Below are positions 36,332 through 51,896 of a stretch of DNA of 64,000 nucleotides, one piece after another. The stretch is from Emcibacter sp. (lineage in GTDB: Bacteria > Pseudomonadota > Alphaproteobacteria > Sphingomonadales > Emcibacteraceae), in assembly GCA_021741205.1 (NCBI GenBank), contig JAIOYI010000002.1:62001-126000 (forward strand), given 5' to 3'. Every line of letters begins with the position of its first letter. Within the stretch, counting starts at the first letter, position 1. Position numbers and translations under genes: made by a program. The notes under the pieces were generated by a model that ran no database searches, was not told the DNA's origin, and was given only the letters and a program-made list of their open reading frames with translations.

Positions 36332-36333
36332 TT

Positions 36334-37839
36334 CTAGTCACTCCTAATATGAACTGCGTGATTGCTTTCAACCAAAAAACTCAATGTATAGGACATTTCA
36401 CCAGATGATCCTGTATGAATACTGTAAAGTGGGGCACCTTTATCAATTTTATCCCCAACAGAAATATGAAGGTCAACACCCGCAGTTTTTTCATACGGTG
36501 CGCCCGCAAGCTTGGCAATTTTTGCAATTTTTCTGTTATCTATGGACGTAATAACACCCCCATTTGGAGCATGTACAATATGGGTAAAGGGTGAAATGGG
36601 AATTTCCCGCATGCCGCCCTGTGCCTCACATATGGCTTGAAATTTCTGCCATGCCCGACCACTATCCAATATGTTCTGAGCCAGAACTATGCCCTGTCCT
36701 TCTGGCACATCAGGTGAAAATTCAAGAATATGTCCTGCTAATGTGATCGCCCTGTCCCGAAGATCAAGGGGCGCAATTGTATCTCGCCGCAATACGGCAA
36801 GAATATCTCTGGCCTCTAAAGCGGGTCCAATGCCACGACCCACCGGTTGTGAGCCATCACTTATATGAACCTTAACAAAAATACCAAGCGTCGCCCCCAC
36901 CGTCACAAGATAATTTTTCAATATTTTTGCCGTCTCCATTGTGCGTACTTTTGCCGTTTCCCCCACGGGCATATCAATCAAAACACAATTTGATCCCGCG
37001 GATATCTTCTTGGAAAGCACCGAGGCCACAAGCTGCCCTTCGCTGTCAAGGTCAAGTGCCTTTTCCACTTGAATTAGCACATCATCAGCGGGACTTAAGG
37101 CTACAGATCCACCCCACACAATACAGCCGTTTTCTTGTTCAACGACCTGACGTATCCTCTTAATATCAAGCTCAACAGGGCAAAGAACCTCCATAGTATC
37201 GGCGGTTCCGGCTGGGGATGTTATGGCTCTTGACGAGGTTTTCGGAATGGTAAGACCAAAGGCCGCAACAATGGACACCACAATCGGTGTTGTTCTGTTG
37301 CCGGGAATTCCACCCACACAATGTTTATCCACCACAAGCCCATTACCCCAATCAAGTCTTTCGCCTACGTTAATCATAGCGCGGCTAAGATCCGTAATTT
37401 CGGTCAAATCCATGCGCCCCCCAGCACAAGCCGTAAGAAATGCCGCTATGTGAATATCGGAATAGCTTCCCGCCGTAATGTCATTAATGATTCTTTGAAT
37501 ATTGTCAGAGGATAAACTGTTGCCATATATTTTTGAGCGAACAAAACTTAGGGATGAAATTGGCTTGGCATGAGAAATCGTGACCAAATCATTTTCCTGT
37601 GCTCCAAGCAAATTCCAAGCGTATTCTGACAGTCCCGCATGATCCTTTGCCAGAATATTACTGTTCACCATATTCAAGGTAGCGATAATAGACCTCGCCC
37701 CCAAGGAAATTTGAACCCGAGCATGAGCTGTGATACCTTCTGACCGGCAAACATGGCAATCCGACCGCATGTAAATGATGGATTCTTTATAACTATCAAT
37801 CCCAATTCTTTGCAGAAATAACGTATTACTTTGGCGCAA
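36334..37839 (-). CDS. Thymidine/AMP phosphorylase family protein
   Basis: A 501-residue nucleoside (mono)phosphate phosphorylase. An N-terminal 85-residue domain, absent from bacterial DeoA, precedes the catalytic core, as in archaeal AMP phosphorylase. Core motifs are DKHCVGGIPGNRTTPIVV near residue 160, SSRAITSPAGTADTMEV near 200 and KISAGSNCVLIDMPVGETAKV. Enzymes of this branch cleave AMP or thymidine with phosphate. It lies between the MBL nuclease gene (2 bases) and the PRPP-synthetase-like gene (2 bases). The substrate is not certain: nucleoside 5'-monophosphate is favoured by the long N-terminus. Confidence 0.85.
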   Translation of the reverse strand: MRQSNTLFLQRIGIDSYKESIIYMRSDCHVCRSEGITAHARVQISLGARSIIATLNMVNSNILAKDHAGLSEYAWNLLGAQENDLVTISHAKPISSLSFVRSKIYGNSLSSDNIQRIINDITAGSYSDIHIAAFLTACAGGRMDLTEITDLSRAMINVGERLDWGNGLVVDKHCVGGIPGNRTTPIVVSIVAAFGLTIPKTSSRAITSPAGTADTMEVLCPVELDIKRIRQVVEQENGCIVWGGSVALSPADDVLIQVEKALDLDSEGQLVASVLSKKISAGSNCVLIDMPVGETAKVRTMETAKILKNYLVTVGATLGIFVKVHISDGSQPVGRGIGPALEARDILAVLRRDTIAPLDLRDRAITLAGHILEFSPDVPEGQGIVLAQNILDSGRAWQKFQAICEAQGGMREIPISPFTHIVHAPNGGVITSIDNRKIAKIAKLAGAPYEKTAGVDLHISVGDKIDKGAPLYSIHTGSSGEMSYTLSFLVESNHAVHIRSD

Positions 37840-37841
37840 TA

Positions 37842-39200
37842 TTATAATTCCTCAATCTGTAAATATTTCGGGATTGATACATCCCAACCAAATTTTTCCT
37901 CTATTTTACTTTTAAGGGCGACTGAGGCCTCTTCTTCTCCGTGGGTGATAAATGTTTTGATTGGTGGTTGTTTAAAATAAGATAACCATTCAAGGAGTTC
38001 TTCATAATCTGCATGGGCAGACATAGTGGTTAAATTTTCTATCCGCGCCCTAACTGGCCACATTTGTCCATGAATTTTAATCTCCTTTTCTCCCCTGATA
38101 ATTCTATCACCTCTCGTGCCTTGCGCCTGAAATCCCGTAAATAAAATTGTGTTTTTGTCGTCTCCCATATAGGTTTTAAGGTGGTGTAATATACGCCCCC
38201 CCGTTGCCATACCACTTGCGGAAATGATCACCGACGGCATAGCATGAGCACTATCCAATTCCTTTGATTCCTCGGCTGTTTTTGTATAAATCGCCGTTCG
38301 GCAGGCATCCCTGCATTCTTTTTCTGAAAGACGATGTTCGCTATTATGTTTATTAAGCAAACTGGTGGCTGCACTGGCCATAGGGCTATCCATGTAAACA
38401 GGGATATCAGGAATTTTCCCTTGTTGTTTTAAGAGATGAATATAATAAAGTACGCTCTGTGCCCGTCCGACAGCAAAGGCTGGAATAATAACAGTACCAC
38501 CCTTTGAAGCCGTGCTTGTGATAATATTACCAAGCCTTTCCGTAGGATCTCCCCTATCATGTAACCGATCCCCATAAGTCGATTCAACCACCAAATAGTC
38601 GGCACTTTCAATATGGATGGGTTCAACCATAATGGGATTATTTGGCCGTCCAATATCGCCAGAAAAGACAATCGTTTTATGCCCATTATTAATCGACACG
38701 AAGGAAGACCCGAGGATATGACCGCTACGCTGAAATTTAATCTTAAAAATATTTCCTATGGTGAAAAATTCATCAAAAGGCATGGGATGAAAATATTTAA
38801 GCGCATTACGGGCATCTTTTTGACTATAAAGAGGTTCCGCCTTAGCATGTTTTGTATAGCCGTATTTATTGGCGCGTCTGGCATCTTCTTCCTGAAGATA
38901 GCCACTATCAGGTAATAAGATTGAACAAAGATCATAAGTGGCTCTTGAGCAGTAAATTTTGCCGCGAAACCCTAGCCTCACAAGTAGGGGTAGATAACCA
39001 CTATGATCAATATGAGCGTGGGTCAACACAACCGCCTCAAGAGAGCCTATATCCAAAGGTAACTTCGCCCAATTTCTAAGCCGTAATTCTTTTTTCCCCT
39101 GAAATAGGCCGCAATCGATGAGTATCTTTGTCTTTTCTTCTTCCAGAAGATATTTTGATCCCGTTACCGTTTCTGTTGCACCTAGAAATTTTAATTTCAT
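37842..39200 (-). CDS. Beta-CASP metallo-beta-lactamase ribonuclease
   Basis: A 452-residue MBL-fold, beta-CASP RNA nuclease, related to Ysh1/CPSF73. Seen: LTHAHIDHSGYLPLL near residue 58 (motif 2), GSSFVSINNGHKTIVFSGDIG, a VESTYGDR segment near 200, FAVGRAQSVLYYI in beta-CASP, and terminal motifs ISASGMATGGR and SAHADYEELLEWL. Cleaves RNA. First gene of the operon with the two nucleotide enzymes, so transcript decay products could feed nucleotide salvage. Bacterial homologues often share this cluster. Confidence 0.9.
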   Translation of the reverse strand: MKLKFLGATETVTGSKYLLEEEKTKILIDCGLFQGKKELRLRNWAKLPLDIGSLEAVVLTHAHIDHSGYLPLLVRLGFRGKIYCSRATYDLCSILLPDSGYLQEEDARRANKYGYTKHAKAEPLYSQKDARNALKYFHPMPFDEFFTIGNIFKIKFQRSGHILGSSFVSINNGHKTIVFSGDIGRPNNPIMVEPIHIESADYLVVESTYGDRLHDRGDPTERLGNIITSTASKGGTVIIPAFAVGRAQSVLYYIHLLKQQGKIPDIPVYMDSPMASAATSLLNKHNSEHRLSEKECRDACRTAIYTKTAEESKELDSAHAMPSVIISASGMATGGRILHHLKTYMGDDKNTILFTGFQAQGTRGDRIIRGEKEIKIHGQMWPVRARIENLTTMSAHADYEELLEWLSYFKQPPIKTFITHGEEEASVALKSKIEEKFGWDVSIPKYLQIEEL

Positions 39201-39379: not shown

Positions 39380-39751
39380 ATGAGCGATAAGTCACTATAC
39401 CAGCGTCTTGGCGGATATGATGGCATAAAAGGTTTCTGTGATGATCTTTTACCCAGAGTTCAGGCTGACCCCTTACTCGGTCGTTTCTGGCAAAATCGGG
39501 GTGATGACGGTATCGCGCGGGAAAAACAATTACTCGTTGATTATCTTTGTGCCAATGCGGGTGGCCCTGTCTATTATACGGGACGTGATATGCTCCTAAG
39601 CCATAAGGGAATGAAAATCAGTGAAGCCGACTGGTCAAATTTCCTTGGTCATGCAGGAGCAACCATGGCCGCTCTCAAGGTTCCACAACAAGAATGCGAC
39701 GATGTGGTTGCCTTCGTGCTTAGCCTAAAAAATGATATTGTCGAGGCATAA
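39380..39751 (+). CDS. Truncated haemoglobin, group 1
   Basis: A 123-residue truncated globin. It begins LYQRLGGYDGIKGFCDDLLP, the group 1 signature, with YYTGRDMLLSHKGMKI around the proximal histidine near residue 77. It binds O2 or NO and often has a detoxifying role. It is a single gene after AT-rich 39,201-39,379 and is convergent with the multihaem operon. No FNR/NnrR site found upstream. Confidence 0.9.
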   Translation: MSDKSLYQRLGGYDGIKGFCDDLLPRVQADPLLGRFWQNRGDDGIAREKQLLVDYLCANAGGPVYYTGRDMLLSHKGMKISEADWSNFLGHAGATMAALKVPQQECDDVVAFVLSLKNDIVEA

Positions 39752-39797: not shown

Positions 39798-41867
39798 TTA
39801 AAATATGGCACGATATCCCATATAGATATAATTTCCTGAGGATGTCTGTTTGATACCCGAAAAGGTTTCATTTCGCCATTCATACCCGCCTTCAAATTCA
39901 ACATAGAGCCATTTACCGATCCGATAATCCATTTTAAGCAACGGGCGGATGATCAATCTTGTATCACTATCCTGTTTGTCGGATTTATAATCTATGCGAA
40001 TTCTTGGGTTGAGCCTAAATGATTGACCAATACGGAAACGGCTATTCATAAATAGCGTATAGGATCTGTCTCTATCACGATCATTATAGCGCACCCCAAT
40101 AATATGGCTGTCATTATCAAAAATCAGATTATTTCCCAAAAGCTGGACAGAGGTGTATATATCCGTTCCGGTACCAGGATACCCTATCACCTGACCCGAG
40201 GTTACCGTGCCTTGCATGTTGGTTGCGGTAATATCAACAGAAAGTTGGTAATGGTCACTCAATTTTTGATTAAGTCCAAAAGTTGCTGTTTTACTGGCCG
40301 ATGTTCTATCCTGTGCAAAAAGATATATTTCTTCCGCTGTATAAAGGTCAAAAAGATCAGAAAGATTTTCCACACCCTCTCCCTGTATGGCATTTGTGGT
40401 GGTGAGCAATGGATTTTTACGATAATCAAGGCTCATATATACCGTTGTATTTTCTGTCAAAATCCAATTGCTGTTGAGCATGATAAGATTGAGTTCTTTG
40501 AAATGAAGATCATAATCGACCATAGCAAACAAAGATTTCCCGTTCTTAAAATATCGAACCTCCCCCCCCACAGCCCGTCTATCAAGCAGGCTTTTGTTTT
40601 TTTGTTCAATAAAATAGGTGGTAAAATCCCATGACTCTAAAAAATCCCCAAAATCAAGGCTTGCCCCATAAAATTTTCGGTCCGTATTGATATTTGTTTG
40701 ACGAGACGATTGTACGGGATATCCATAAACCGTATTAATTTTAATTTTTGAGGTGATTTCATATCCTAAATCAACACCATCAAATCGACCAAGAACGCCG
40801 CCAGAGCTTTTTGATTGACGCCCCAATCGTGCGTTTATGCCATGCTTTTTGTCCCGAAAATCAAAAAAAAGTCGACTCAACCTTTTTCTATTATCTCGTC
40901 CATCAAGAAAATCATTATCATGACTGCCCACGAACTGGAACCGCATGTCATAATCCTTGTTACGCATACGCAGATTAAGGTCAGCATTGCTGTTTAAACT
41001 GGAAACATTAACGCGTTTATCGCCACCTTGCGGCGATGTTTCATCCCGAAAATAAAATTGTGACAGACTGCCATAAACGGATGTATCCCACATACCATCT
41101 TCTTTAGGTGAAGATAACTTAGACTGCCGAAGTTTTGGTTGAGCATTTTGGTTCGCTGTCATCAAGGCGTCCAAGCGTTGTTTCACCCGAACCGCATCTG
41201 GTCCATCAGGATAAAGTTTCAAAAATCGTTCATATTCTGCTTTGGCATGAGCGAATTGATTATTTCGTTGCCGCGCAAGGCCAAGATATTCCAACGCTTT
41301 CTTGTGGCTAGCACCAGCACTTGTCGCCTCAGCCTTGGTCAAAAGACGAAGGGCCTTGGTATAATCATTCACTTTTAAGGCTTCCATAGCCTCGGCCAGT
41401 AAAGGGCTTTCCATAACCTCTTTAATCAAAAGCGTTACAGACCGTTGATCATGTGACCCGCTGACATCAAAATCAACGTCATGATTAAAAAGGATAGACA
41501 AAACGGGACTGCCCGCATTACCACCTTCCCAGAATATTTCCTGTACCGATGGTGCAGATGAATGATCCCATGTCAGATTTGAATGTTCCGACAAGGTTTT
41601 GATATCTGTTCCATCAAGGCCATTTAAGGAATTCACCTTAAATTGAATACGGACATTATTGCCCTTGGAATCTGGAATATGACCAATATATTGCATCGGA
41701 AAGGCAAAATTAATTTGAATTTCGCTGCCTTCTGAAGCCTGTCTTATATCCACATCCTCTACGACCCGTGCCTGAACAATGGTCGGGTAAATCAACAACA
41801 ATGCCGTTAGAATAAGTGACGTTTTCATAACAGCAAGGCACGCTTTGTTTTGTTTGTTGTTGTGCAT
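39798..41867 (-). CDS. TPR/beta-barrel outer-membrane protein of the multihaem operon
   Basis: A 689-residue exported protein I do not recognise by name. After a signal segment (residues 14-33, KTSLILTALLLIYPTIVQA) comes a beta domain (35-145), then two TPR-like helices (165-235: YTKALRLLTKAEAT, FAHAKAEYERFLKLYPDG), then from about 275 to the end a series of alternating polar/hydrophobic strands ending in Tyr-Arg-Ala-Ile-Phe, the usual C-terminal aromatic of outer-membrane barrels. No haem motif. Its ATG overlaps the stop of the 31-haem gene (TAATG), so the two are coupled. I infer it is the outer-membrane conduit partner of the cytochromes. Confidence 0.72.
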   Translation of the reverse strand: MHNNKQNKACLAVMKTSLILTALLLIYPTIVQARVVEDVDIRQASEGSEIQINFAFPMQYIGHIPDSKGNNVRIQFKVNSLNGLDGTDIKTLSEHSNLTWDHSSAPSVQEIFWEGGNAGSPVLSILFNHDVDFDVSGSHDQRSVTLLIKEVMESPLLAEAMEALKVNDYTKALRLLTKAEATSAGASHKKALEYLGLARQRNNQFAHAKAEYERFLKLYPDGPDAVRVKQRLDALMTANQNAQPKLRQSKLSSPKEDGMWDTSVYGSLSQFYFRDETSPQGGDKRVNVSSLNSNADLNLRMRNKDYDMRFQFVGSHDNDFLDGRDNRKRLSRLFFDFRDKKHGINARLGRQSKSSGGVLGRFDGVDLGYEITSKIKINTVYGYPVQSSRQTNINTDRKFYGASLDFGDFLESWDFTTYFIEQKNKSLLDRRAVGGEVRYFKNGKSLFAMVDYDLHFKELNLIMLNSNWILTENTTVYMSLDYRKNPLLTTTNAIQGEGVENLSDLFDLYTAEEIYLFAQDRTSASKTATFGLNQKLSDHYQLSVDITATNMQGTVTSGQVIGYPGTGTDIYTSVQLLGNNLIFDNDSHIIGVRYNDRDRDRSYTLFMNSRFRIGQSFRLNPRIRIDYKSDKQDSDTRLIIRPLLKMDYRIGKWLYVEFEGGYEWRNETFSGIKQTSSGNYIYMGYRAIF

Positions 41868-44323
41868 TAATCAAAACTCCCATCCGTTGCTCTATGTTCG
41901 CTATTTCTTCTTGTCTTAATTATCGTCAAACTGCTGTCCGTATAGATATGACAAGATCCCGCACAATCCCGAAGCTCACTAACCGTATAATAGGTTGTGG
42001 GACCGTCAGTTTTCTTATGCGGGTCTATCTTATATTGATTAGCGTGGCAGGCTGCACAATCCGGTTGATAGGCGGGAGCCCGCCAAGGAATAATCTCATT
42101 ATTTGAAGTGTGACAATCATTACAAGCTAATCGACCAATACCATGATCTGGATAATTTCCTGTCATATGACTATAGCTCGTGAAATTCCAATTTAAGGTG
42201 GTATGACATTCATCACATTCAATGGTTGTGATAAAATGGCCGTTTCCTTTTCCTGTAGCGATCGTTCCATTGTGACAACTTGAACAGCTACCCAAAATTT
42301 GAGCATGATCCACGGTGGCAGGTGTCCATGCATTTGATGTATGACAATCTTCACAAATATTGGTGGTCAAGACATGGTTCACATTCTTACCCGTGGCGAT
42401 GGTGCCATTGTGACAAGAGGCACAGCTGCCCAAAACTTGGGCATGATCCACGCTCGCTGGTGTCCATGCATTTGATGTGTGACAATCTTCACAAATATTG
42501 GTCGTTGAAACATGGTTCACATTCTTACCCGTGGCGATGGTACCGTTATGACAGGTGGAACAGCTGCCCAACACCTGGGCATGATCCACGCTCGCCGGCG
42601 TCCATGCATTTGATGTGTGGCAATCTTCACAAATATTGGTCGTTGAAACATGGTTCACATTCTTACCCGTGGCGATGGTACCGTTATGACAAGTGGAACA
42701 GCTGCCCAAAACTTGGGCATGATCAACCCTGCTCACGGGTGACCAACCCGTTACCGTATGACAATCTTCACAAATATTGGTCGTGGAAATATGATTCTGG
42801 CCTTTGCCTGTTGCGGTTATGCCATCATGGCAACTAGCACAAGTTCCATTGATATTATTATGATTGAAATTAGCTGGCAACCATGCATTTGATGTGTGAC
42901 AATCATCACAAACTGTCGTGCTGTCAACATGGGTTAAGTGTTTTCCCGTGGCGATCGTTCCATTATGGCAGCTAAAACATGTGCCCATAACTTGAGTATG
43001 ATCCACAGTCACACTGGTCCAAATTGACGGCACATGGCAATCTTCACAAATATTAGTGGTCAGTATGTGACTACCGCCCTTACCATCAGCAATCGTGCCA
43101 TTATGACAGCTAAAACATGATCCAAGAACTTGGGCGTGATCCACCGTTGCTGTTGTCCAATTCAAGGGGATATGGCAATCCTCACAAATATTGGTGGTCA
43201 GTATGTGATTACCGCCCTTACCATCAGCAATCGTGCCATTATGACAACTCGAACATGATCCAAGAACTTGGGCGTGATCCACGGTAACAGGGGATGTCCA
43301 GCTCGAAGAGACATGGCAATCTTCGCAAATGCTCGTCGTGGAAATATGGGTCATATTTTTTCCCATGGCAATGGTACCATTATGACAGGTGGAACAGGCA
43401 CCCAACACTTGGGCGTGATCAACGCTTGCCCCAAGCCAACTGTTTGTTGAAACGTGACAATCTTCACAGATATTGGTTGTTGAAATATGATTGGCGCTTT
43501 TGCCGTCTACCATTGTTCCATTATGACATGAGACACAATTTCCATTCACCCCATCATGAGAAAAAGTTGCAGGAAGCCAACCATTGGTTATATGGCATTC
43601 ATCACAATTATTGGCAGAGGGAAAATGATTAGCGCCTTTTCCGCTGGCAATACTGCCATTATGGCAGCTTTCGCAAGTGCCGATAACTTCCGCATGATCC
43701 ACACGGTTTACAATATCCCAGCCATTTACCACATGGCAGGCCTCGCATAGTGCGGTTGTTTGAATATGGGTTGAATTTTTTCCAATAACTATTGTGCCGT
43801 TATGACAACCAGCACAGTTTCCCTCAACGCCCGTATGGTCAAAACGGGCATTGGTGAAATTCAGAGTAATATGGCAATCTTCACAATTATCAGAGCTTCT
43901 GACGTGGGTTGGATTTTTTCCCATCGCCGTTTGTCCATTGTGACAACTGATACAGCTTCCCAGAACCGAGGCATGGTCAAAACGCACAAGGCTTTCCCAA
44001 CTGTTGGTAGAGTGGCAATCTTCACATTCATTTCGCGTATTAATATGGTTCAATGGCCGTTCCGAGGCGGCAATATACCCTCCTCTATCATGGCAACTGA
44101 TGCAACGCTTGGGGGTTCCTTTAAAAACGCCATTAATATGGCAGCTATCACATTCAAGGGTTTTATGTTGACCTTCAAGAGGAAATCCTGTTTGAAAGTG
44201 ATCAAAATCCGTCTGTGCCACCGCATCAATGGTCGGAGACATCAGCAACATGCCACACAAAACAAATAAAAGCATCATACCATGCCATTTGAAGAGATGT
44301 GATAGTTTTACATTCTGTATCAT
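41867..44323 (-). CDS. 31-haem c-type cytochrome with tandem two-haem repeats
   Basis: An 818-residue exported protein with 31 CxxCH motifs and a final CAGSCH (CX3CH). Signal peptide at about residues 1-37 (WHGMMLLFVLCGMLLM). The centre consists of 13 two-haem units of about 46 residues: CEDCHxxxxW, then VDHAQVLGSCxxCHNGTIA-GK. Each unit has several His that can be second axial ligands (VDH, NH). ATG 44,323 overlaps the upstream stop as ATGA and is chosen over the frame opening at 44,365. Lack of catalytic-haem variants suggests pure electron transport rather than nitrite- or hydroxylamine-type chemistry. Location periplasmic or cell surface. Confidence 0.9.
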   Translation of the reverse strand: MIQNVKLSHLFKWHGMMLLFVLCGMLLMSPTIDAVAQTDFDHFQTGFPLEGQHKTLECDSCHINGVFKGTPKRCISCHDRGGYIAASERPLNHINTRNECEDCHSTNSWESLVRFDHASVLGSCISCHNGQTAMGKNPTHVRSSDNCEDCHITLNFTNARFDHTGVEGNCAGCHNGTIVIGKNSTHIQTTALCEACHVVNGWDIVNRVDHAEVIGTCESCHNGSIASGKGANHFPSANNCDECHITNGWLPATFSHDGVNGNCVSCHNGTMVDGKSANHISTTNICEDCHVSTNSWLGASVDHAQVLGACSTCHNGTIAMGKNMTHISTTSICEDCHVSSSWTSPVTVDHAQVLGSCSSCHNGTIADGKGGNHILTTNICEDCHIPLNWTTATVDHAQVLGSCFSCHNGTIADGKGGSHILTTNICEDCHVPSIWTSVTVDHTQVMGTCFSCHNGTIATGKHLTHVDSTTVCDDCHTSNAWLPANFNHNNINGTCASCHDGITATGKGQNHISTTNICEDCHTVTGWSPVSRVDHAQVLGSCSTCHNGTIATGKNVNHVSTTNICEDCHTSNAWTPASVDHAQVLGSCSTCHNGTIATGKNVNHVSTTNICEDCHTSNAWTPASVDHAQVLGSCASCHNGTIATGKNVNHVLTTNICEDCHTSNAWTPATVDHAQILGSCSSCHNGTIATGKGNGHFITTIECDECHTTLNWNFTSYSHMTGNYPDHGIGRLACNDCHTSNNEIIPWRAPAYQPDCAACHANQYKIDPHKKTDGPTTYYTVSELRDCAGSCHIYTDSSLTIIKTRRNSEHRATDGSFD
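42270..44030 (-). repeat. Tandem two-haem coding repeats (period 138-141 bp)
   Basis: Thirteen coding repeats within the 31-haem gene. Copies near 42,340-42,770 are almost identical at DNA level, for example the segment ending ACAAATATTGG recurs at exactly 138-bp steps (42,353; 42,491; 42,629). The identity suggests recent duplication and possible copy-number variation. Short reads would collapse such a region. Confidence 0.85.
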
Positions 44324-45894
44324 CTTCCGATCCTTATTTTCTTGAAGCTTTCTGTAATGTGACAACGGTTACAGCTGGTGCCAAATCGTCCATGATGGGC
44401 GTCGTCTTTTTCATGACAAGAAACACAGTCTTGTGATAATTGCATTTTGCTCTCTTTTGGCATCTTATGACAGGCGGAACAGACCAACCCCTCATGTGAC
44501 CCCTCCAACTTATATTTGGTTTGTGCGTTATGATCAAATTGCCAGAAACTCCAGCCATTAGGATTATGACAGGCCGCACAATCCTTCCCTAATGTCTGCT
44601 TATGCACATCATCCTCCTCGTGGCAAGAAAAGCAAATGGTTTTTGCATCCTTATATTGATGCGTCGTATGACAATCATCGCAGGTGGCAATGGCATGAAG
44701 ACCAATCAAAGGAAACATCGTCAACTCATGATCAAACCGAACCTTTTTGCCCCAAGATTTCTCGTTATGACAAGTTTCACAGGCCGTCCCCAACTGCCCC
44801 TTATGAACATCATCGGATTTATGGCAATCAAAACAAATGCGGGCTTTGTCCAGATGTTTCTCTGGGCCCCTATGACAGGAAAAACATGTCACATCCTTGT
44901 GGGCGCCCTTTAATATAAATTTTGTATCTTTATCGTGGGAAAATTCTGTTTTCTTCCAATCCGTCTCATTATGACATTTCTGACACTCAAGACCATTGCG
45001 TCCCTTATGAATATCTATGGTCACATGGCAATCATTACAGTTTTTTGAGACTTTGGCTTTTGGTGTTGTAGTCCTATGACAGGCCTCGCAGTCAATTTCT
45101 TGATGTTTACCCTTTAATAAAAATTTTGCGTCTGTGCCATGATCAAATTTTACCGTCTTCCAGTCCTTTTCCGAATGACATGTGGCACATTTCTGGCCAA
45201 AGCGCCCCTCATGGTTATCATTGCTCCCATGACAGGCAATACATTCCATGGGCGTTTGCTTATAACGGGTATCTGGATGACATGACTTACACGCCACCTT
45301 TTCATGATGACCTTTTAGGGGAAACTTAGTTTTAGCATGATCAAATTTTACCGTCTTCCACAAGGATGAGTCGTGACAAGAGCTACAATCCTTGCCCATA
45401 TCACCTTTGTGACTGTCATCCTTTTCATGACAGGAAAAACAATCTGTCTTTGCTTCCCTGAATTTTTTCTGATCTTGGTGACATAAATGACAGCTTGCCG
45501 CCGCATGTTTTCCTGTTAGCGGAAAGTCCGTCATGTCATGATTAAAAATTTCCTGATTAAAGCCCAAGATATCCGCATTGCGGCCTTCGTGATCTGTATG
45601 GCAGGTTTTGCATTCTGAGGAAGATACCTTATTATTTCGCCCATGAAAGCCCTGTTTTTTAGTGATATCCAAGCCAACCTTTTCATGACATTTAAGGCAT
45701 AGGCTATCTTGCAATTCTTTATTAAGCGGGGAATGACATTCCGTACAATTTTTTTCATATTTGGCGTGGGGCTGACTTAAATCACCCGGCATAACGAGAT
45801 TTTCAAGTTTATTGACCAATTGATAAGCAAATGCCGTTCCCTGCATAAGGAACAGGTTCGCCCACAAACTGATCAATAATATGCTATATATCAC
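44320..45894 (-). CDS. 21-haem c-type cytochrome (cytochrome c3/c7-like repeats)
   Basis: A 524-residue exported protein with 21 CxxCH motifs. Signal peptide at residues 1-23 (MIYSILLISLWANLFLMQGT). Repeats follow the pattern CxxCHxxxDWKTVKFDH-x6-FxLKGxH, as in doubled tetra/triheme c7 domains, with VHKG or DSHKGD between and many free His. Lysine-rich, hence positively charged, unlike the 31-haem neighbour. Periplasmic electron relay is the likely role. Twelve bases after the b-type cytochrome gene and overlapping the 31-haem gene by 4. Confidence 0.9.
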   Translation of the reverse strand: MIYSILLISLWANLFLMQGTAFAYQLVNKLENLVMPGDLSQPHAKYEKNCTECHSPLNKELQDSLCLKCHEKVGLDITKKQGFHGRNNKVSSSECKTCHTDHEGRNADILGFNQEIFNHDMTDFPLTGKHAAASCHLCHQDQKKFREAKTDCFSCHEKDDSHKGDMGKDCSSCHDSSLWKTVKFDHAKTKFPLKGHHEKVACKSCHPDTRYKQTPMECIACHGSNDNHEGRFGQKCATCHSEKDWKTVKFDHGTDAKFLLKGKHQEIDCEACHRTTTPKAKVSKNCNDCHVTIDIHKGRNGLECQKCHNETDWKKTEFSHDKDTKFILKGAHKDVTCFSCHRGPEKHLDKARICFDCHKSDDVHKGQLGTACETCHNEKSWGKKVRFDHELTMFPLIGLHAIATCDDCHTTHQYKDAKTICFSCHEEDDVHKQTLGKDCAACHNPNGWSFWQFDHNAQTKYKLEGSHEGLVCSACHKMPKESKMQLSQDCVSCHEKDDAHHGRFGTSCNRCHITESFKKIRIGR

Positions 45895-45905
45895 TTAATT
45901 TTTCC

Positions 45906-46862
45906 TCAATACCAATGCACCGCAATAACATGAACAATCGCCGCAATAACCAACATGAAAAAAAGTGGTAGATGAAGCACATGCCAAAGTGCAAACATGC
46001 GTTCATAAAAGGTCAGTTCAACCACTTTACAGGCGCCGTCCAAAAATACGCGCACCTCCTTAATAATCTTTCTGACTTTTGCCTTAATCTCTTTCTTTGA
46101 ATATTGCTCACTTTGTGCCTTTTCCATTAATCCTGTCTGAATATTTTTTCTTGTTCTTGCAATGAGACGACGTGACCCTATTCCCACACTCATAACCCGA
46201 CCCCAACTATGAAGAATTCCCTTTGGCGGGCTTAGCACATGATCCACAAATGCAAATAATTCATCTCTAATTTCTGGATTAAAATGAAGCAGAGCGGTTA
46301 ATTCGCTTTGATTATCATGAAGTTTATTTTTCAACTGACCCAGTTCAATTTTTTGACCATAGAGTCCATGATGAATTTTTGTATAGATATAGCGACCAAC
46401 CACTCCACTAATGGAGACAATCAACATGGAAAATAACGCCACATTACTGTTGGTGGACCCAAGGTCGAAATTGGAATGAAATAAAATAAGCACAGGCCCC
46501 ACAATCCCCAAAACCATATGAAGGCTGAACCAAGCCCTCACATCCCCCATAATGCTTAAAATTCTGTAGCGCTTGCGCAAAGGATAAAGAAGAAGGGCGA
46601 GCATCATGCACCCTCCAATAATCCCAAGCGCATATCCCACACCCTTTTCTGCGGTAAAATACGCATATTCCCGCAAACGAAACCCAACAAAAAGAGCACT
46701 CAACGTCACAAATGCAAAAAGGAACGGCATCATATTCCATATAAATTTGCCGATCTTAAATGAGTTGATCTTATCTTCCTTAATCACCCTTATGTCTTTC
46801 TCTTGTTCTTGTGCCAAGGCTTGAGAAAAATTTATATCTTCTGCTCTTAATTGCCTTTCCAT
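45906..46862 (-). CDS. b-type cytochrome-like integral membrane protein
   Basis: A 318-residue membrane protein with five predicted helices (residues 41-63, 74-95, 109-130, 140-162, 292-316) and a large soluble loop at 165-290. Histidines at 115 and 129 on the third helix and 297 and 311 on the last are each 14 residues apart, the spacing of two stacked b haems in a four-helix bundle. A role as the quinol or cytoplasm-to-periplasm electron passage is inferred. It is followed by the 21-haem gene after 11 bases and its ATG overlaps the upstream stop by one base. Confidence 0.68.
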   Translation of the reverse strand: MERQLRAEDINFSQALAQEQEKDIRVIKEDKINSFKIGKFIWNMMPFLFAFVTLSALFVGFRLREYAYFTAEKGVGYALGIIGGCMMLALLLYPLRKRYRILSIMGDVRAWFSLHMVLGIVGPVLILFHSNFDLGSTNSNVALFSMLIVSISGVVGRYIYTKIHHGLYGQKIELGQLKNKLHDNQSELTALLHFNPEIRDELFAFVDHVLSPPKGILHSWGRVMSVGIGSRRLIARTRKNIQTGLMEKAQSEQYSKKEIKAKVRKIIKEVRVFLDGACKVVELTFYERMFALWHVLHLPLFFMLVIAAIVHVIAVHWY

Positions 46863-48769
46863 TAAAATATATCCTTTAAAAATGATCGTGATGATTCATA
46901 CTCTTCTATTAATGTTAAAAGCTTTTTATTAAATTCATCCGTAGCATCATGAGCCTTTTGCCGCTTGCTGTTGCGGATACGGGGATTTGCTCCCGCTTTT
47001 AATAAAATCTCAGTAACCTCATAGGAACCACTTCTTGCGGCCATAATAAGCGCCGTATCCCCCATATTATTTTTATGATCAATATCATCATATTGAGATA
47101 AAAAGGCCACAATATCTACATGCCCCTTTTCTGCGGCGAGCATTAAGGCTGTATTTCCTTCATTTGTGGTTGTGGATAAAATACTTTCCTGCTCTGATAG
47201 ATATTTGACAGAAAATAAATGTCCATTCTGTGCTGCATGAATAAGCGCCGTTCGACCAGATGAATCCTTTATGTCAATGAGGGCATTATGGCGCAGCAAA
47301 CTTTTCACACCCTCCTGATTACCATTTTTCGCTGCAATCATCAGTGCCGTTTCGCCCATGACATTAATTTTATTAACGTCTACACCCCCGTCAATCAATT
47401 TTGTCACGAGATTATCATCAGCACTTGTCGCCATAAGAATTAAGGGAGATAAAGTTTTGTTACCTTCAAAATTCACGCCTTCTTTGATCAATAGATCGGA
47501 AATTTCTGACTGACCATTGAGCATGGCATGGGCGAGTGTATGCTCTAAGACGCTTTGACAGGCGGGACTTTCTTTTAACGCCGGAAGCAACATTTTCACA
47601 ACCTTGCTATGGCCTTGCTTTGTCGCCAAATAAAATGGATGTTTTTCTGGATCATCGTCACAATTTAAATGAGCCCCCCCATCCAATAAAAGATAAATAA
47701 CGGAAAGATGACCGCCCTGTGCCGCAAGGCCGAGTGCCGTAAGACCGTCTCTATCTCTCAGATTAATATCATCCACTTCACTTAAAGCGGCCTTCACTGC
47801 CGTCTCATCGCCTCGCCATGCGGCATACATAACAGAGGACCAGCCACGTTTTTTATTATTATCCGACTGATGTTCCAATTGTTGAAGATTTTCTTTTCTT
47901 TCTTTATCAGCCAATAAATTGGCAAGTTTTTTACCGCCGGAAGTTTTGATCATTTGAATGAGTGTCCCATTCTTTTGTCCAACCGCAACATCATAAACTG
48001 ATCGCCCCTTGATGTTGGTTGCAAAAACATCCGCTTTATTATGAAGCAAAAATTTTGCCAGAGGAATATTTTCCCGGTAGATTGCAAACATCAACGGTGT
48101 AGAATTTTGCTTATCCCGAATATCAATATCAGCACCATATTTCACAAGCAATTTGACAATATCCAAACTGTTGCGGTTTGCCGCAATCAAAAGTGGCGCA
48201 TCCTTATCTTTATTGCGCATATCAGGTTTTGCCCCCGATTTCAGCAAGAAATCAACAATCTTTGTATTCCCCTGATAGGTGGCCTCCATCAAGGCTGTAA
48301 TACCTAAACCATCCCCATAATTCACATCTGCCCCACTTTTAATATAGTGCCGCACCAAGGCCAAGTCCCCTTTGCTGCTTGCTTTAAGAAGGGATTGCTC
48401 GGCGGTTTCTGCGTTATCCAGAACGGGTAATTCACCCTGCTGCAACTGAGTCAGTTTCTTTTGCGCCTTAAGATGTCCTTGATCGGCGGCCTTTGTGTAC
48501 CATTCAATTGCCTTTTCAGCATTTTTCTGAGTTCCTTGGCCAGCCTTATACATATTGGCAAGATGATATTCGGCCTCTCTATTGCCCTGTTCTGCTTCAA
48601 TATAAAAAAGCTTAAAAGCCGCTTCAAAATCACGGTTTCGGGCAGCAGCCAAGGCTTCATCCATTGTGGCATAAGCGTTATTAGAAAACATAAGAAAGGC
48701 AAGAGCCGACAATATAATAGCAACCTTAAAAAGACATTTCTCAATATGATAATGGCTTAACAATATCAT
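46862..48769 (-). CDS. Exported Sel1-repeat and ankyrin-repeat protein
   Basis: A 635-residue protein. Signal peptide at about residues 10-34 (VAIILSALAFLMFSNNAYA). Two Sel1-like repeats (45-105, NREAEYHLANMYKAGQGTQ). About 13-14 ankyrin repeats (120-630, e.g. GITALMEATYQGNTKIVDFL), interrupted near 285-315 by a charged linker. No haem or catalytic motif. Ankyrin modules bind proteins, so this may be a periplasmic scaffold for the cytochromes. It abuts the oxidoreductase gene without a gap. Confidence 0.82.
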   Translation of the reverse strand: MILLSHYHIEKCLFKVAIILSALAFLMFSNNAYATMDEALAAARNRDFEAAFKLFYIEAEQGNREAEYHLANMYKAGQGTQKNAEKAIEWYTKAADQGHLKAQKKLTQLQQGELPVLDNAETAEQSLLKASSKGDLALVRHYIKSGADVNYGDGLGITALMEATYQGNTKIVDFLLKSGAKPDMRNKDKDAPLLIAANRNSLDIVKLLVKYGADIDIRDKQNSTPLMFAIYRENIPLAKFLLHNKADVFATNIKGRSVYDVAVGQKNGTLIQMIKTSGGKKLANLLADKERKENLQQLEHQSDNNKKRGWSSVMYAAWRGDETAVKAALSEVDDINLRDRDGLTALGLAAQGGHLSVIYLLLDGGAHLNCDDDPEKHPFYLATKQGHSKVVKMLLPALKESPACQSVLEHTLAHAMLNGQSEISDLLIKEGVNFEGNKTLSPLILMATSADDNLVTKLIDGGVDVNKINVMGETALMIAAKNGNQEGVKSLLRHNALIDIKDSSGRTALIHAAQNGHLFSVKYLSEQESILSTTTNEGNTALMLAAEKGHVDIVAFLSQYDDIDHKNNMGDTALIMAARSGSYEVTEILLKAGANPRIRNSKRQKAHDATDEFNKKLLTLIEEYESSRSFLKDIF

Positions 48770-50083
48770 TCATGCCTTCCCATATTTCGTTTCAACATCT
48801 ATCCCAACATCCTTTAAAAAGGCCGTTGGCAGAATGCCACCCGCACAAACAATAACCACATCATTTGGTAATGTGGCCTGACTGCCATTCTGCTCCAATA
48901 AAATTTCATGCGGTGTAATGGACTGAATATTTGAGGAAAGCATAACATTCAAACGGCCTAATTTCTGCGCTGCCTCAACATTATCTCTGTTCTTCTGTTT
49001 AGCCCGTCCGAAGGCTGCACTGCGATAGGATAAACTTACAGTTGTTCCTGCAATTTCTGCAATAGAATAGGCCGCCTCTAGTGCGCTATCTCCGCCACCG
49101 ACCACCATGACATGCTGACCTGTATATTGTTCTGGATCAATCAAGCGGTAAACCACCTTATCCAATTCTTCTCCCGCCACATTCAATTTACGGGGTGTTC
49201 CCCGCCTGCCAATAGCCAATAAAATACTTCTTGTCAAAAAGGTGTTTTTTTCTGTTTTTACATGAAATAAATCATTGGCGGGCGTCACATTTACAACCCG
49301 TTCGCCGTACTGAATTTTAAGTCCTGTTTTATCCCGTACCTCATGCCAAAATTGCAGCAGGCTTTCTTTGGTTGTTTCCCTAAATTTAGCCTTACCAAAG
49401 ATTGGCAAGTTCACAGGTTGGGTCATAACAATTTTTCCCCGTGGGTAATGAGCCACGGTTCCACCAAATTCTTCTTGCTCCAAGGTTACAAATTTCATTT
49501 TCTTTTCCATCGCAGCAAGGGACGCTGAAAAACCCGCAGGCCCCGCCCCTATAATTACAACATCAAGGGCATCTTGTGAAATTTTCTTTGATTTTCTTTC
49601 CAAAATACTCTGCATGGCCTGCCTGCCCTGTTCAATGGCATTTCGGATCAACCCCATTCCACCCAATTCACCCGCAATAAAAATTCCCGGCACATTGGTT
49701 TCAAAATTCTTATGAACAAAGGGAATATCAACCCCTCTTCTCTCTGTACCAAAGACCAGCTCAATAGCATCAAAGGGGCAGGATTTTTGACAAGCTCCAT
49801 GCCCAATACAATGAGAAGGCGCAATAAGTTCGGCCTTGGCATTTATCACCCCAAGCACATTTTGTTCTGGGCATGCCTTCACACAAGAGGCACATCCTAA
49901 ACATTTATTAGGATCAATAACAGGATGAAGAGACGGCGGCTCAATCAATCCAGCCTCTTGTTCTTCCTTTTTACGCTTACGACTGATATTTTCTTTACGT
50001 ATTTTTGTCCAGTAATATACAAACAATATACTGGCAATAATAAATCCGTAAATAAGCCAATCAATTTTAAACTCAGCCAACAT
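48770..50083 (-). CDS. Membrane-anchored FAD oxidoreductase with two iron-sulfur clusters
   Basis: A 437-residue protein, first gene of the operon. Residues 9-26 form a membrane anchor (WLIYGFIIASILFVYYW). A ferredoxin-type domain follows with CLGCASCVKACP (C61, C64, C67, C71) and HCIGHGACQKSCP, in which the second cysteine of the second cluster is His95. Then an FAD-dependent thioredoxin-reductase-like domain with IIGAGPAGFSAS near 175 and NAD(P)-binding VVGGGDSALEAA near 325. No CxxC redox pair of thioredoxin reductase is seen. It probably takes electrons from NAD(P)H or ferredoxin and delivers them to the membrane cytochrome. Confidence 0.83.
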   Translation of the reverse strand: MLAEFKIDWLIYGFIIASILFVYYWTKIRKENISRKRKKEEQEAGLIEPPSLHPVIDPNKCLGCASCVKACPEQNVLGVINAKAELIAPSHCIGHGACQKSCPFDAIELVFGTERRGVDIPFVHKNFETNVPGIFIAGELGGMGLIRNAIEQGRQAMQSILERKSKKISQDALDVVIIGAGPAGFSASLAAMEKKMKFVTLEQEEFGGTVAHYPRGKIVMTQPVNLPIFGKAKFRETTKESLLQFWHEVRDKTGLKIQYGERVVNVTPANDLFHVKTEKNTFLTRSILLAIGRRGTPRKLNVAGEELDKVVYRLIDPEQYTGQHVMVVGGGDSALEAAYSIAEIAGTTVSLSYRSAAFGRAKQKNRDNVEAAQKLGRLNVMLSSNIQSITPHEILLEQNGSQATLPNDVVIVCAGGILPTAFLKDVGIDVETKYGKA

Positions 50084-50272: not shown

Positions 50273-50325
50273 ATGATAATAAGTATGTTTTATGGCATTT
50301 TTGTGACTATAACTTGGCTCGTTCT

Positions 50326-50859
50326 ATGAAAAAAAGTTTACTCCTCATTGCTGGATTGATTTTAGTTGGACAGATTGTCTGGATTTTAATCACCCACAAC
50401 ACGACTGTAAAAAACTCTGATAATGCAGTCATAATTCCTGATTTTTCATTGCCGTCACTTTTTGAGGGGGAAAATCTTGTTCAACGGTCTGATCTTATTT
50501 CTCAGAACATCCGGGTGGTGAATTTCTTCGCCTCCTGGTGTGGACCTTGTAAAATGGAACATCCCTTTCTGATGGATATAAAGCAGAAAAACATCAAAAT
50601 AATGGGCATAAGTTTTCAAGATTCACAAGACGGCTCTCTGAAATTTTTAAATGACAAAGGCAATCCCTATCATCTTAGCGCATGGGATGGCGAGGGCAAA
50701 ACCTATTATAATTTTGGCATCGAAAGCATTCCCCAAACTTTTATCATTGATGACAAGGGTCACATTCTCTATCATAGACAAGGTCGTATCCGTGAAAGTG
50801 ATATGACCAATGACATCCTGCCTTTACTCAAAAATATACCGTCTCACTTGGATCAATAA
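50326..50859 (+). CDS. Thioredoxin-like DsbE/CcmG-type protein
   Basis: A 177-residue membrane-anchored thioredoxin. N-terminal anchor at residues 4-22 (LLLIAGLILVGQIVWILI), active site FASWCGPCKMEHP near residue 72, then a cis-proline IPQTFIIDD. CcmG proteins keep apocytochrome haem-binding cysteines reduced for cytochrome c maturation. ATG 50,326 is preferred over TTG 50,314, although no strong ribosome site is seen. It is divergent from the multihaem operon and precedes a CcmI-like gene by 11 bases, implying dedicated maturation. Confidence 0.82.
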   Translation: MKKSLLLIAGLILVGQIVWILITHNTTVKNSDNAVIIPDFSLPSLFEGENLVQRSDLISQNIRVVNFFASWCGPCKMEHPFLMDIKQKNIKIMGISFQDSQDGSLKFLNDKGNPYHLSAWDGEGKTYYNFGIESIPQTFIIDDKGHILYHRQGRIRESDMTNDILPLLKNIPSHLDQ

Positions 50860-50870
50860 AGGAATTTTTT

Positions 50871-51896
50871 ATGAATTGGCTTGTTCTTCTTATCACTTCT
50901 GCTGTTAGTTCTAGCATTATAATGTATGCTTTATGGCCGAGCTCATCAGATAATAATACCCGCAAAATTTTTGCGGTCTCTATTGCCCTTGTCGCTCTCT
51001 TTTTACCCGTAAGTTTAAATTATTATTATACACAATCTTCTTCAACCATGATCAACAGTGAACCCCCCTCCTACACGCCCCCGACACAACAACAATCTGT
51101 TTGGACAGGTGGCACCCGTGGTACGGGCGCAGCAATGCCTGATCAGGGCAGTGTTGATATGGGGATGTCTGCTGTTATCAGCCGACTTGAAGAAAAACTT
51201 GCCCAAAACCCTAATAATCTTAACGGTTGGATATTGCTTGGACGATCTTATGTTGCTATTGGTGAAACAGAAAAAGCCATAACAGTTTTTAAAGCAAAAT
51301 TGATAGAAAACCCTGAAAACCCCAATCTTTTAATGTCTTACGGCGAATCTTTGGCTAAATTAAATGAAGGAATGATCAGTCAGGAAGCACAAACATTATT
51401 TGCCAAAGCGCTTGCTATTGAGCCCAATAATCCACGTGCAATTTATAATGTCGCCCTTTATGATCTGCAAAAAGGACACAATCAAAAGGCCTATGATAGC
51501 CTCAATGCGCTTTTGGACAGTGCGCCAGAGGAGAACACCGCTTGGCGCAGCCAAATAATGGAAAGTATCAATATCGCTGCGGTAAAGCTTGGTCTAAAAC
51601 TAGCCCCATCTGAAACGTCGATACCAAACCCAACCGCAGAACAAGCCGCCGCCATTAATAATCTATCCTCAGAAGATAAAAATGCCTTTATCCGAAATAT
51701 GGTGGATGGTCTTGCCACTAAATTAAAAGATAATCCCAATGATTTTCAAGGTTGGTTAAGGTTAGGGCGATCTTATTCAGTTCTGGACGATCAGAAAAAT
51801 GCCGCCTTTGCCTACCAGCAGGCCTTAAAGCTCAGCCCTAATGATGAGGCCGTAAAAAAATTATACCAAGACGCCTCGGCTAAGGCGTCCCAATAA
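50871..51896 (+). CDS. CcmI-like TPR protein for cytochrome c maturation
   Basis: A 341-residue protein. Two membrane helices at residues 3-22 and 31-50, as in CcmI, then a proline/glutamine-rich linker (65-90) and TPR repeats (100-200: LNGWILLGRSYVAIGETEKA; 270-335: FQGWLRLGRSYSVLDDQKNA). CcmI binds apocytochrome C-termini in the haem ligation complex. AAGGA precedes ATG. Sister gene of the CcmG-like one. No other ccm genes are present, so the core system must be elsewhere. Confidence 0.8.
   Translation: MNWLVLLITSAVSSSIIMYALWPSSSDNNTRKIFAVSIALVALFLPVSLNYYYTQSSSTMINSEPPSYTPPTQQQSVWTGGTRGTGAAMPDQGSVDMGMSAVISRLEEKLAQNPNNLNGWILLGRSYVAIGETEKAITVFKAKLIENPENPNLLMSYGESLAKLNEGMISQEAQTLFAKALAIEPNNPRAIYNVALYDLQKGHNQKAYDSLNALLDSAPEENTAWRSQIMESINIAAVKLGLKLAPSETSIPNPTAEQAAAINNLSSEDKNAFIRNMVDGLATKLKDNPNDFQGWLRLGRSYSVLDDQKNAAFAYQQALKLSPNDEAVKKLYQDASAKASQ

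What the first reader, a model, noticed from the sequence alone, without database searches (positions are those of the whole stretch)
39798..50083. Six-gene candidate electron conduit across both membranes in an alphaproteobacterium
Seen: a gap-free or overlapping minus-strand operon coding a membrane-anchored FAD/2[Fe-S] oxidoreductase, a Sel1-ankyrin protein, a five-helix protein with two His pairs 14 residues apart, a 21-haem and a 31-haem exported cytochrome, and a TPR/beta-barrel protein ending in Phe. Known: porin-cytochrome complexes for extracellular iron or electrode electron transfer pair a barrel with multihaem cytochromes; from memory, a cluster of neutrophilic iron oxidisers called PCC3 has two such large cytochromes, a porin and inner-membrane proteins. 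Inferred: this is an extracellular electron transfer system, with direction (oxidation or reduction) unknown. The barrel shows no MtrB likeness I can recognise, and the ankyrin and oxidoreductase members are not part of classic Mtr systems.
Basis: partly seen in the sequence, partly recalled or inferred. Interest (0 to 1): 0.87.

Follow-up and report, generated by a model that had tools for sequence, protein, structure and literature searches.

The report
Electron wire across a bacterial envelope
Six adjacent genes in an alphaproteobacterium encode a known but untested kind of electron wire (PCC3) through both cell membranes, together with an enzyme that may feed it from the cell's own NAD(P)H and that the published lists of its parts which I saw do not name.

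Summary
In detail: six minus-strand genes at 39,798-50,083 encode a membrane-anchored FAD/2[Fe-S] oxidoreductase (A), an exported Sel1-ankyrin protein (B), a five-helix protein with two WX3HX13H motifs (C), 21- and 31-haem exported cytochromes (D, E) and a TPR protein with a predicted 22-strand barrel (F). It is PCC3, the predicted porin-cytochrome complex of He et al. 2017: C carries the published motifs, and profiles built on this cluster find both PCC3 clusters (17/21 and 24/28 haems) of a genome that fits Sideroxydans lithotrophicus ES-1. The published unit has four genes (C-F). A is a further recurrent part: strong matches occur in the same 4 of 385 alphaproteobacterial genomes as C, and in 33 of 33 C-bearing genomes of a Gallionella family sample against 2 of 47 without C. 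B accompanies C in 31 of 56 loci, none titled Gallionella. A is a TrxR/YpdA-like flavoenzyme, by sequence circularly permuted, with an invariant His in its second Fe-S site. Most likely mechanism (inferred): NAD(P)H, FAD, Fe-S, two b haems, 21-haem wire, 31-haem cytochrome, outside. The papers seen treat PCC3 mainly as a candidate iron oxidase. Known kind, incomplete parts list, direction now testable.

The parts
48770..50083 (-). A: membrane-anchored FAD/2[Fe-S] oxidoreductase, 437 aa; N-terminal TM helix then positive charges (catalytic part probably cytoplasmic)
49871..49903 (-). A residues 61-71: first Fe-S motif CxxCxxCxxxCP (C64 is Cys in 24 of 32 aligned sequences)
49778..49810 (-). A residues 92-102: second Fe-S motif CxxHxxCxxxCP; His95 in 32 of 32
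49583..49753 (-). A residues 111-167: segment corresponding to the C-terminal part of YpdA/TrxR-type enzymes, here placed before the FAD domain (circular permutation)
48785..49567 (-). A residues 173-433: FAD- and NAD(P)-binding YpdA/TrxR-like domain
46862..48769 (-). B: Sel1 + ankyrin-repeat protein, 635 aa, N-terminal hydrophobic segment (probably periplasmic)
45906..46862 (-). C: five-helix inner-membrane protein = PCC3 IMP, probable di-haem b
46476..46532 (-). C W111/H115/H129: first WX3HX13H motif (TM3)
45930..45986 (-). C W293/H297/H311: second WX3HX13H motif (TM5)
44320..45894 (-). D: exported 21-haem cytochrome, seven tri-haem units (first one degenerate); periplasmic MHC of PCC3
41867..44365 (-). 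E: exported 31-haem cytochrome with di-haem repeats of about 46 residues; extracellular MHC of PCC3; likely start 44,323
42258..42797 (-). 138-bp tandem repeats in E, 3.9 copies, 87% matches; a second array (84%) lies at 42,954-43,289
39798..41867 (-). F: beta domain + TPR + predicted 22-strand outer-membrane barrel; PCC3 porin

Best explanation
The operon is a PCC3 porin-cytochrome conduit together with its own cytoplasmic electron-entry enzyme. NAD(P)H reduces the FAD of A; electrons pass through the two Fe-S clusters of A to the cytoplasm-side b haem of C (H115/H297), then to the periplasm-side b haem (H129/H311), along the tri-haem units of D across the periplasm, into E held by barrel F in the outer membrane, and out to an extracellular acceptor (metal oxide, humic material, another cell or oxygen). 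B is probably a periplasmic scaffold or assembly factor for the long cytochromes. Shown: gene content, motifs, predicted folds of A and F, orthology to PCC3, frequent company of A. Inferred: cofactor loading, docking of A on C, outward direction, role of B. Outward flow is preferred because a passive two-haem path carrying electrons inward to NAD(P)+ would run against both the redox gradient from ordinary donors such as Fe(II) and the membrane potential (established bioenergetics, not computed here).
For: PCC3 identity: motifs of C; C and F profiles hit both PCC3 clusters of the ES-1-like genome (C at E 4e-70 and 6.5e-74, F at 2e-80 and 6e-77, E-values for the ORFs of two 20-kb stretches), with the published 17/21 and 24/28 haem counts; 31 and 21 haems against published medians of 34 and 21, 26 and 25 aa per haem against a median of 26. 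A as partner: in 47 of 56 named loci found through C, and elsewhere in the genome in 5 of the other 9; strong A in exactly the 4 of 385 alphaproteobacterial genomes with strong C; in 80 genomes of the family of a Gallionella MAG, 33 of 33 with C and 2 of 47 without. A is a pyridine-nucleotide-type flavoenzyme: nearest solved relatives are YpdA/Bdr and thioredoxin/ferredoxin-NADP reductases; G329, G330, G331, D332, A334 and R354 of the NAD(P) region are invariant in 32 of 32. Six-gene order complete in 6 of 12 fetched relative regions. Host: no RuBisCO large-subunit match in this 94%-complete genome, three COX1-family oxidases. Both ES-1 PCC3 clusters were lower on Fe(II) than on thiosulfate (PMC8788666, passages); in ES-1 on magnetite the first cluster was largely not detected and the second was at similar levels in all samples, its extracellular cytochrome not detected (PMC12016527, passages).
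Against: No biochemical test of a PCC3 protein was seen. In Sideroxydans CL21 the inner-membrane gene of PCC3 copy 2 rises in cells able to oxidise iron (PMC12442390, passages), which favours the inward or Fe(II) reading. A was not found anywhere in 4 of the 9 genomes whose C locus lacks it: three gammaproteobacterial MAGs (two titled Woeseiaceae or Woeseia) that carry C and B, two of them with haem and barrel genes in view, and one with C alone (MAGs, so possibly incomplete). A is not always linked to C: in the ES-1-like genome the second cluster has no A within the 20 kb read, and one A copy lies far from both clusters. Two family members have A without C. C64 of the first Fe-S motif is not Cys in 8 of 32. 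A may use quinone, ferredoxin or a disulfide and not NAD(P)H. The quinone-linked model of He et al. is not excluded.
Confidence: 0.5

Rival explanations
1. PCC3 as proposed by He et al.: an electron-uptake conduit. E takes electrons from Fe(II) or another donor, D and C deliver them to the quinone pool, and A is a side branch.
For: PCC3 is found in several Fe(II) oxidisers and C resembles quinone-active cytochrome b by motif (PMC5566968, sections 15 and 17 read); the IMP of PCC3 copy 2 is raised in iron-oxidising CL21 cells.
Against: ES-1 clusters go down on Fe(II); no RuBisCO match in this host; the frequent partner A is a pyridine-nucleotide-type flavoenzyme.
Confidence: 0.3
2. A reversible redox valve: PCC3 exchanges electrons with the outside in either direction to balance NAD(P)H and quinone pools, storing charge in about 52 c haems.
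For: Large haem number with few residues per haem; the capacitor idea, and evidence that Mto/Mtr flow can be reversed, are stated in PMC10734462 (passages).
Against: Nothing in the sequence favours reversibility; a His in an Fe-S site could as well set one direction.
Confidence: 0.15
3. Not respiratory: a surface redox system for metal acquisition or detoxification, with A-C acting like a ferric reductase/NADPH oxidase.
For: C shares the HX13H arrangement of ferric reductase/NOX domains; patchy distribution among relatives.
Against: 52 haems and a long periplasmic wire are costly for simple metal reduction; only 1 of 29 C homologues touches Ferric_reduct, at E 0.77.
Confidence: 0.05

Closest known systems
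PCC3 (He et al. 2017; Sideroxydans, Gallionella, Leptothrix and others)
   Same: Same IMP family and motifs, homologous porin, 21-haem periplasmic and longer, variable extracellular cytochrome, same C-D-E-F order
   Different: Published definition has four genes; here A and B lead the same operon on one strand. In the loci titled Gallionella A, where seen, is upstream and divergent, and B was not seen
MtrCAB / MtoAB / PioAB
   Same: Principle of barrel plus multihaem cytochromes across the outer membrane
   Different: No MtrB_PioB match in the genome; cytochromes of 21 and 31 haems, not ten; inner-membrane entry is a five-helix protein plus a flavoenzyme
YpdA/Bdr and TrxR-like NAD(P)H flavoenzymes
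   Same: FAD and NAD(P) domain of A (residues 173-433), by sequence and predicted fold
   Different: Membrane anchor, two Fe-S motifs, C-terminal segment moved in front of the FAD domain; far below the YpdA and TrxR curated cut-offs
NADPH oxidase / ferric reductase transmembrane domain
   Same: Two pairs of His 14 residues apart on two helices and a flavoenzyme on the cytoplasmic side (works like)
   Different: No significant sequence relation; the flavoenzyme is a different kind on a separate protein

Membership tests
PCC3 | IMP of about 300 aa with five TM helices, SGXXG in TM4 and WX3HX13H in TM3 and TM5 | tested here: met
   318 aa; W111/H115/H129, S152-G156, W293/H297/H311; invariant in 29 of 29 aligned homologues; definition from PMC5566968 section 17
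PCC3 | Homology of IMP and porin to those of S. lithotrophicus ES-1 | tested here: met
   C and F profiles hit both clusters of a genome with a 3,003,656-base contig and 17/21 and 24/28 haems, as published for Slit_0867-0870 and Slit_1446-1449.
PCC3 | Periplasmic MHC (median 21 haems) and extracellular MHC (median 34), few residues per haem | tested here: met
   21 and 31 haems; 25 and 26 aa per haem
PCC3 | Outer-membrane beta-barrel porin in the cluster | tested here: met
   AlphaFold2 model with C-terminal barrel; outer-membrane barrels as best PDB matches; a prediction, not a measured structure
PCC3 | Locations of the two cytochromes (periplasm, cell surface) and electron conduction | not testable with these tools
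   Only N-terminal export signals seen by eye
MtrAB/MtoAB/PioAB | MtrB/PioB-family barrel | tested here: not met
   PF11854: no match in the whole genome
YpdA / thioredoxin reductase | Score over the curated family cut-off | tested here: not met
   162.3 bits against 339.9 for YpdA, 89.3 against 343.45 for TrxR
Ferric reductase / NOX domain (PF01794) | Significant match to the domain | tested here: not met
   1 of 29 members at E 0.77

The most novel reading that the evidence does not exclude
PCC3 is not an iron-oxidation conduit but a trans-envelope NAD(P)H oxidoreductase: a circularly permuted flavo-ferredoxin enzyme (A) drives a two-haem b membrane protein that bypasses the quinone pool and discharges cytoplasmic reductant through about 52 c haems to the outside. 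The four-gene definition missed its electron source, which is present in nearly all PCC3 genomes looked at here, including the likely genome of the model iron oxidiser ES-1.
Probability: 0.35. Interest if true: 0.75.

Novelty: new member of a known kind. Interest (0 to 1): 0.52.

Why it matters
PCC3 has been listed since 2017 as a candidate extracellular electron transfer and iron oxidation system; a 2025 paper still calls it functionally unverified (PMC12442390, passages). Its direction and its link to central metabolism are open. If a NAD(P)H-type enzyme is a regular part, the direction question becomes a simple bench assay, and surveys that count PCC3 as a sign of iron oxidation could be counting the opposite activity. 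This operon is handy for such work because all six parts sit on one strand.

Tried and rejected
Rejected: classic Mtr system (no MtrB_PioB match); F as a soluble protein (barrel model); A as an unrelated neighbour (co-occurrence also when unlinked); haem motifs by chance; C as a member of a named Pfam family or with a solved relative (three chance-level matches). Led nowhere: search for a solved relative of F gave almost only TPR-type and designed proteins, no barrel; the Methylobacter conduit paper (PMC13322032, passages) proved to be an Mtr-type system; a paper listing for Emcibacter with cytochrome (nine papers, listing only) was not followed.

Limits: figures and supplementary tables of the PCC3 papers were not seen, so A or B may be drawn there. 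The Fisher tests treat genomes as independent, which they are not. Contig ends cut many loci: with at least 2.5 kb upstream of C, A is present in 42 of 48; with at least 8 kb downstream, F in 25 of 30; with at least 5 kb upstream, B in 21 of 35. Many genomes are incomplete MAGs. Ankyrin genes elsewhere in the Gallionella genomes were not searched. The structural search with VIA-align was not available. The two fold jobs went to F and A; C, D, E and complexes were not folded.
Full report
WHAT IS THERE. Six minus-strand ORFs lie at 39,798-50,083: A 437 aa, B 635 aa, C 318 aa, D 524 aa, E 832 aa (probably 818 from the ATG at 44,323), F 689 aa. Junctions: A/B directly adjacent, B/C overlap by one base, C/D 11-base gap, D/E and E/F overlap. 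D has 21 and E 31 CXXCH motifs against means of 0.3-0.4 in shuffles. D consists of seven tri-haem units, E of di-haem repeats of about 46 residues, part of which are still 84-87% alike as DNA in two 138-bp arrays; this fits its variable haem number in relatives.

IDENTITY. He et al. 2017 (PMC5566968; sections 15 and 17 read, other passages seen) define PCC3 as porin, extracellular MHC (median 34 haems), periplasmic MHC (median 21) and a five-helix IMP of about 300 aa with SGXXG and two WX3HX13H motifs. C fits, and W111, H115, H129, S152, G153, G156, W293, H297 and H311 are invariant in 29 of 29 aligned homologues. A scan of genome contigs with the C alignment gave 56 loci, nine of them titled Gallionella sp.. 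In one genome of the same family, with a 3,003,656-base contig, two clusters with 17/21 and 24/28 haems are picked up by the C and F profiles; these are the numbers reported for S. lithotrophicus ES-1 Slit_0867-0870 and Slit_1446-1449 (PMC8788666, passages), so the genome is almost surely ES-1 (inferred; unnamed in the tool). Membership in PCC3 is therefore tested and met.

THE BARREL. AlphaFold2 on 25 sequences (mean pLDDT 87.4, pTM 0.58) gives an N-terminal helix, a beta domain (36-149), a TPR block (155-239) and a C-terminal barrel (261-688) in which I count 22 strands. The 50 PDB matches listed are outer-membrane barrels, all at TM-score below 0.5; MtrB was not among them, and the MtrB_PioB family has no match in the genome.

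GENE ORDER. Among relatives 13 of 60 genomes have a C match, own included, 10 of them at E 1e-82 or better. Regions of the 12 others were read: A-B-C-D-E-F complete and on one strand in 6, cut by contig ends in 1, C alone in 2 (one with an internal stop), and only weak C-like matches in 3. Two of the 6 belong to another family of the order. D has 21 haems in all 6; E has 19, 31 or 33. Of 44 named loci in which the first cytochrome ORF after C is not cut by the contig end, 27 have 21 haems, 9 have 24, one has 27 and 7 have 14-23 (my count from the list). The system is accessory: in the class sample 4 of 385 genomes, own included, have a strong C (E 1e-65 or better); 15 more have weak matches, 8e-18 or worse.

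A IS A RECURRENT PART. A was found in 47 of the 56 named loci: 34 upstream divergent, 9 upstream same strand, 4 downstream. Of the 9 loci without it, 5 genomes have A elsewhere; 4 do not: three gammaproteobacterial MAGs (two titled Woeseiaceae or Woeseia) and one with an isolated C (which searched 12 genomes: these 9 and 3 that do have A in the locus; 8 of 12 positive). In the class sample the strong A matches (E 1e-60 or better) are in the same 4 of 385 genomes as the strong C matches, in one of them on another contig. In 80 genomes of the family of a Gallionella MAG, C occurs in 33 and A in 35: all 33 with C have A, and 2 of 47 without C have A. In the ES-1-like genome A stands beside the porin of the first cluster and again far from both; none lies within the 20 kb read around the second cluster.

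PRINT RECORD. Six PCC3 papers were looked at by passages (PMC5566968, PMC10734462, PMC12442390, PMC8788666, PMC12016527, PMC13386937). The word ankyrin occurs in none of the six main texts; FAD and ferredoxin were searched in two and not found as parts of PCC3 in the places shown. No paper in the library holds Slit_0866, the tag expected for the neighbour of Slit_0867; none joins ankyrin repeat with multiheme cytochrome, extracellular electron transfer and operon; one joins pyridine nucleotide-disulfide oxidoreductase with multiheme, porin and EET, a Geobacter transcriptome (listing only); of 42 papers in a wider search 20 were listed, none with ankyrin. Figures and supplements were not seen, and most subscription papers are not in the library.

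WHAT A IS. An N-terminal helix, then a run of positive charges, so the catalytic part should be cytoplasmic. Two ferredoxin motifs follow; in the second the second Cys is His95, in 32 of 32 aligned sequences; in the first C64 is Cys in 24 of 32. Residues 173-433 match YpdA/Bdr and thioredoxin/ferredoxin-NADP reductases by profile and by fold (model pLDDT 84.2; best 7apr_B, E 1.5e-22). The piece that ends such enzymes elsewhere lies in front: the unaltered protein gives a very weak second match of residues 124-142 to positions 277-295 of 7a7b (-0.7 bits); moving residues 111-167 to the end raises the scores from 90.6 to 98.2 and from 84.8 to 94.8 bits and extends the matches to positions 295 and 311, and the YpdA model match from 264 to 311 of 316 positions (score only 163.9 to 167.9; AhpF fell from 62.2 to 61.0). 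A circular permutation is thus supported by sequence; it was not checked on coordinates.

B. Sel1 plus ankyrin repeats behind a hydrophobic N-terminus; in 31 of 56 loci, none of them titled Gallionella, and not in every gammaproteobacterial locus either. Its role is guessed: scaffold or assembly factor in the periplasm.

MECHANISM. By charge, C is N-in/C-out with a 130-residue positive cytoplasmic loop (helices placed by hand), which stacks one His pair on each side of the membrane. With A on the cytoplasmic side, the simplest chain is NAD(P)H, FAD, Fe-S, two b haems, D, E in F, outside. This resembles NADPH oxidase or ferric reductase in working, not in descent. Outward flow is inferred from thermodynamics and from the nature of A. 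Supporting context: no RuBisCO match and three COX1-type oxidases in this 94%-complete genome; ES-1 clusters lower on Fe(II) than on thiosulfate; in ES-1 on magnetite the first cluster largely undetected and the second unchanged. Against: PCC3 occurs in many iron oxidisers, and in CL21 the IMP of copy 2 rises with iron-oxidising ability.

VERDICT. A real and complete member of a known, functionally unverified kind (PCC3), whose published parts list, as far as seen, lacks its likely electron-entry enzyme.

Noticed in passing
window 50314-51896 (+): DsbE-family thioredoxin and a TPR protein that looks CcmI-like (label recalled), divergent from the operon; homologues stand at the same place in 4 of the 6 complete relative loci (L015-L018), not in L020/L021: possible cytochrome c maturation genes kept beside the cytochromes.
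   Followed up: partly
L023 7156-12226, L024 7570-12645: In another family of the order a related but different set: an 814-816 aa A-like protein, a C-like membrane protein (seen as an ORF in L024) and a 10-haem cytochrome, near a 1368-1383 aa 10-haem protein.
   Followed up: no
L019/L054 7644-8663; L022 151-1185: Isolated C homologues without the rest of the cluster in two same-genus genomes, one interrupted by a stop codon: probable remnants of a lost system.
   Followed up: partly
L059 3840-7199, L079 2030-5230: In two Woeseia-type MAGs without A, a 1066-1119 aa protein with HYR and weak PSCyt-type matches and two CXXCH lies next to the ankyrin gene; a possible substitute partner.
   Followed up: partly
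L053: A MAG titled Candidatus Omnitrophota carries the full six-gene order with C about 50% identical to the window's: gene transfer or misbinning.
   Followed up: no
window 35423-39200 (-): PRPP synthetase, archaeal-type thymidine/AMP phosphorylase and a beta-CASP-like MBL protein in a row; the last scores below cut-off for Cas14 MBL and aCPSF1 models.
   Followed up: no
window 39380-39751 (+): Small protein that looks like a truncated haemoglobin by eye (no NCBIfam match), convergent with the barrel gene.
   Followed up: no
L149 (G470): A genome of the Gallionella family sample with a strong A match but no C match: A alone or an incomplete genome.
   Followed up: no
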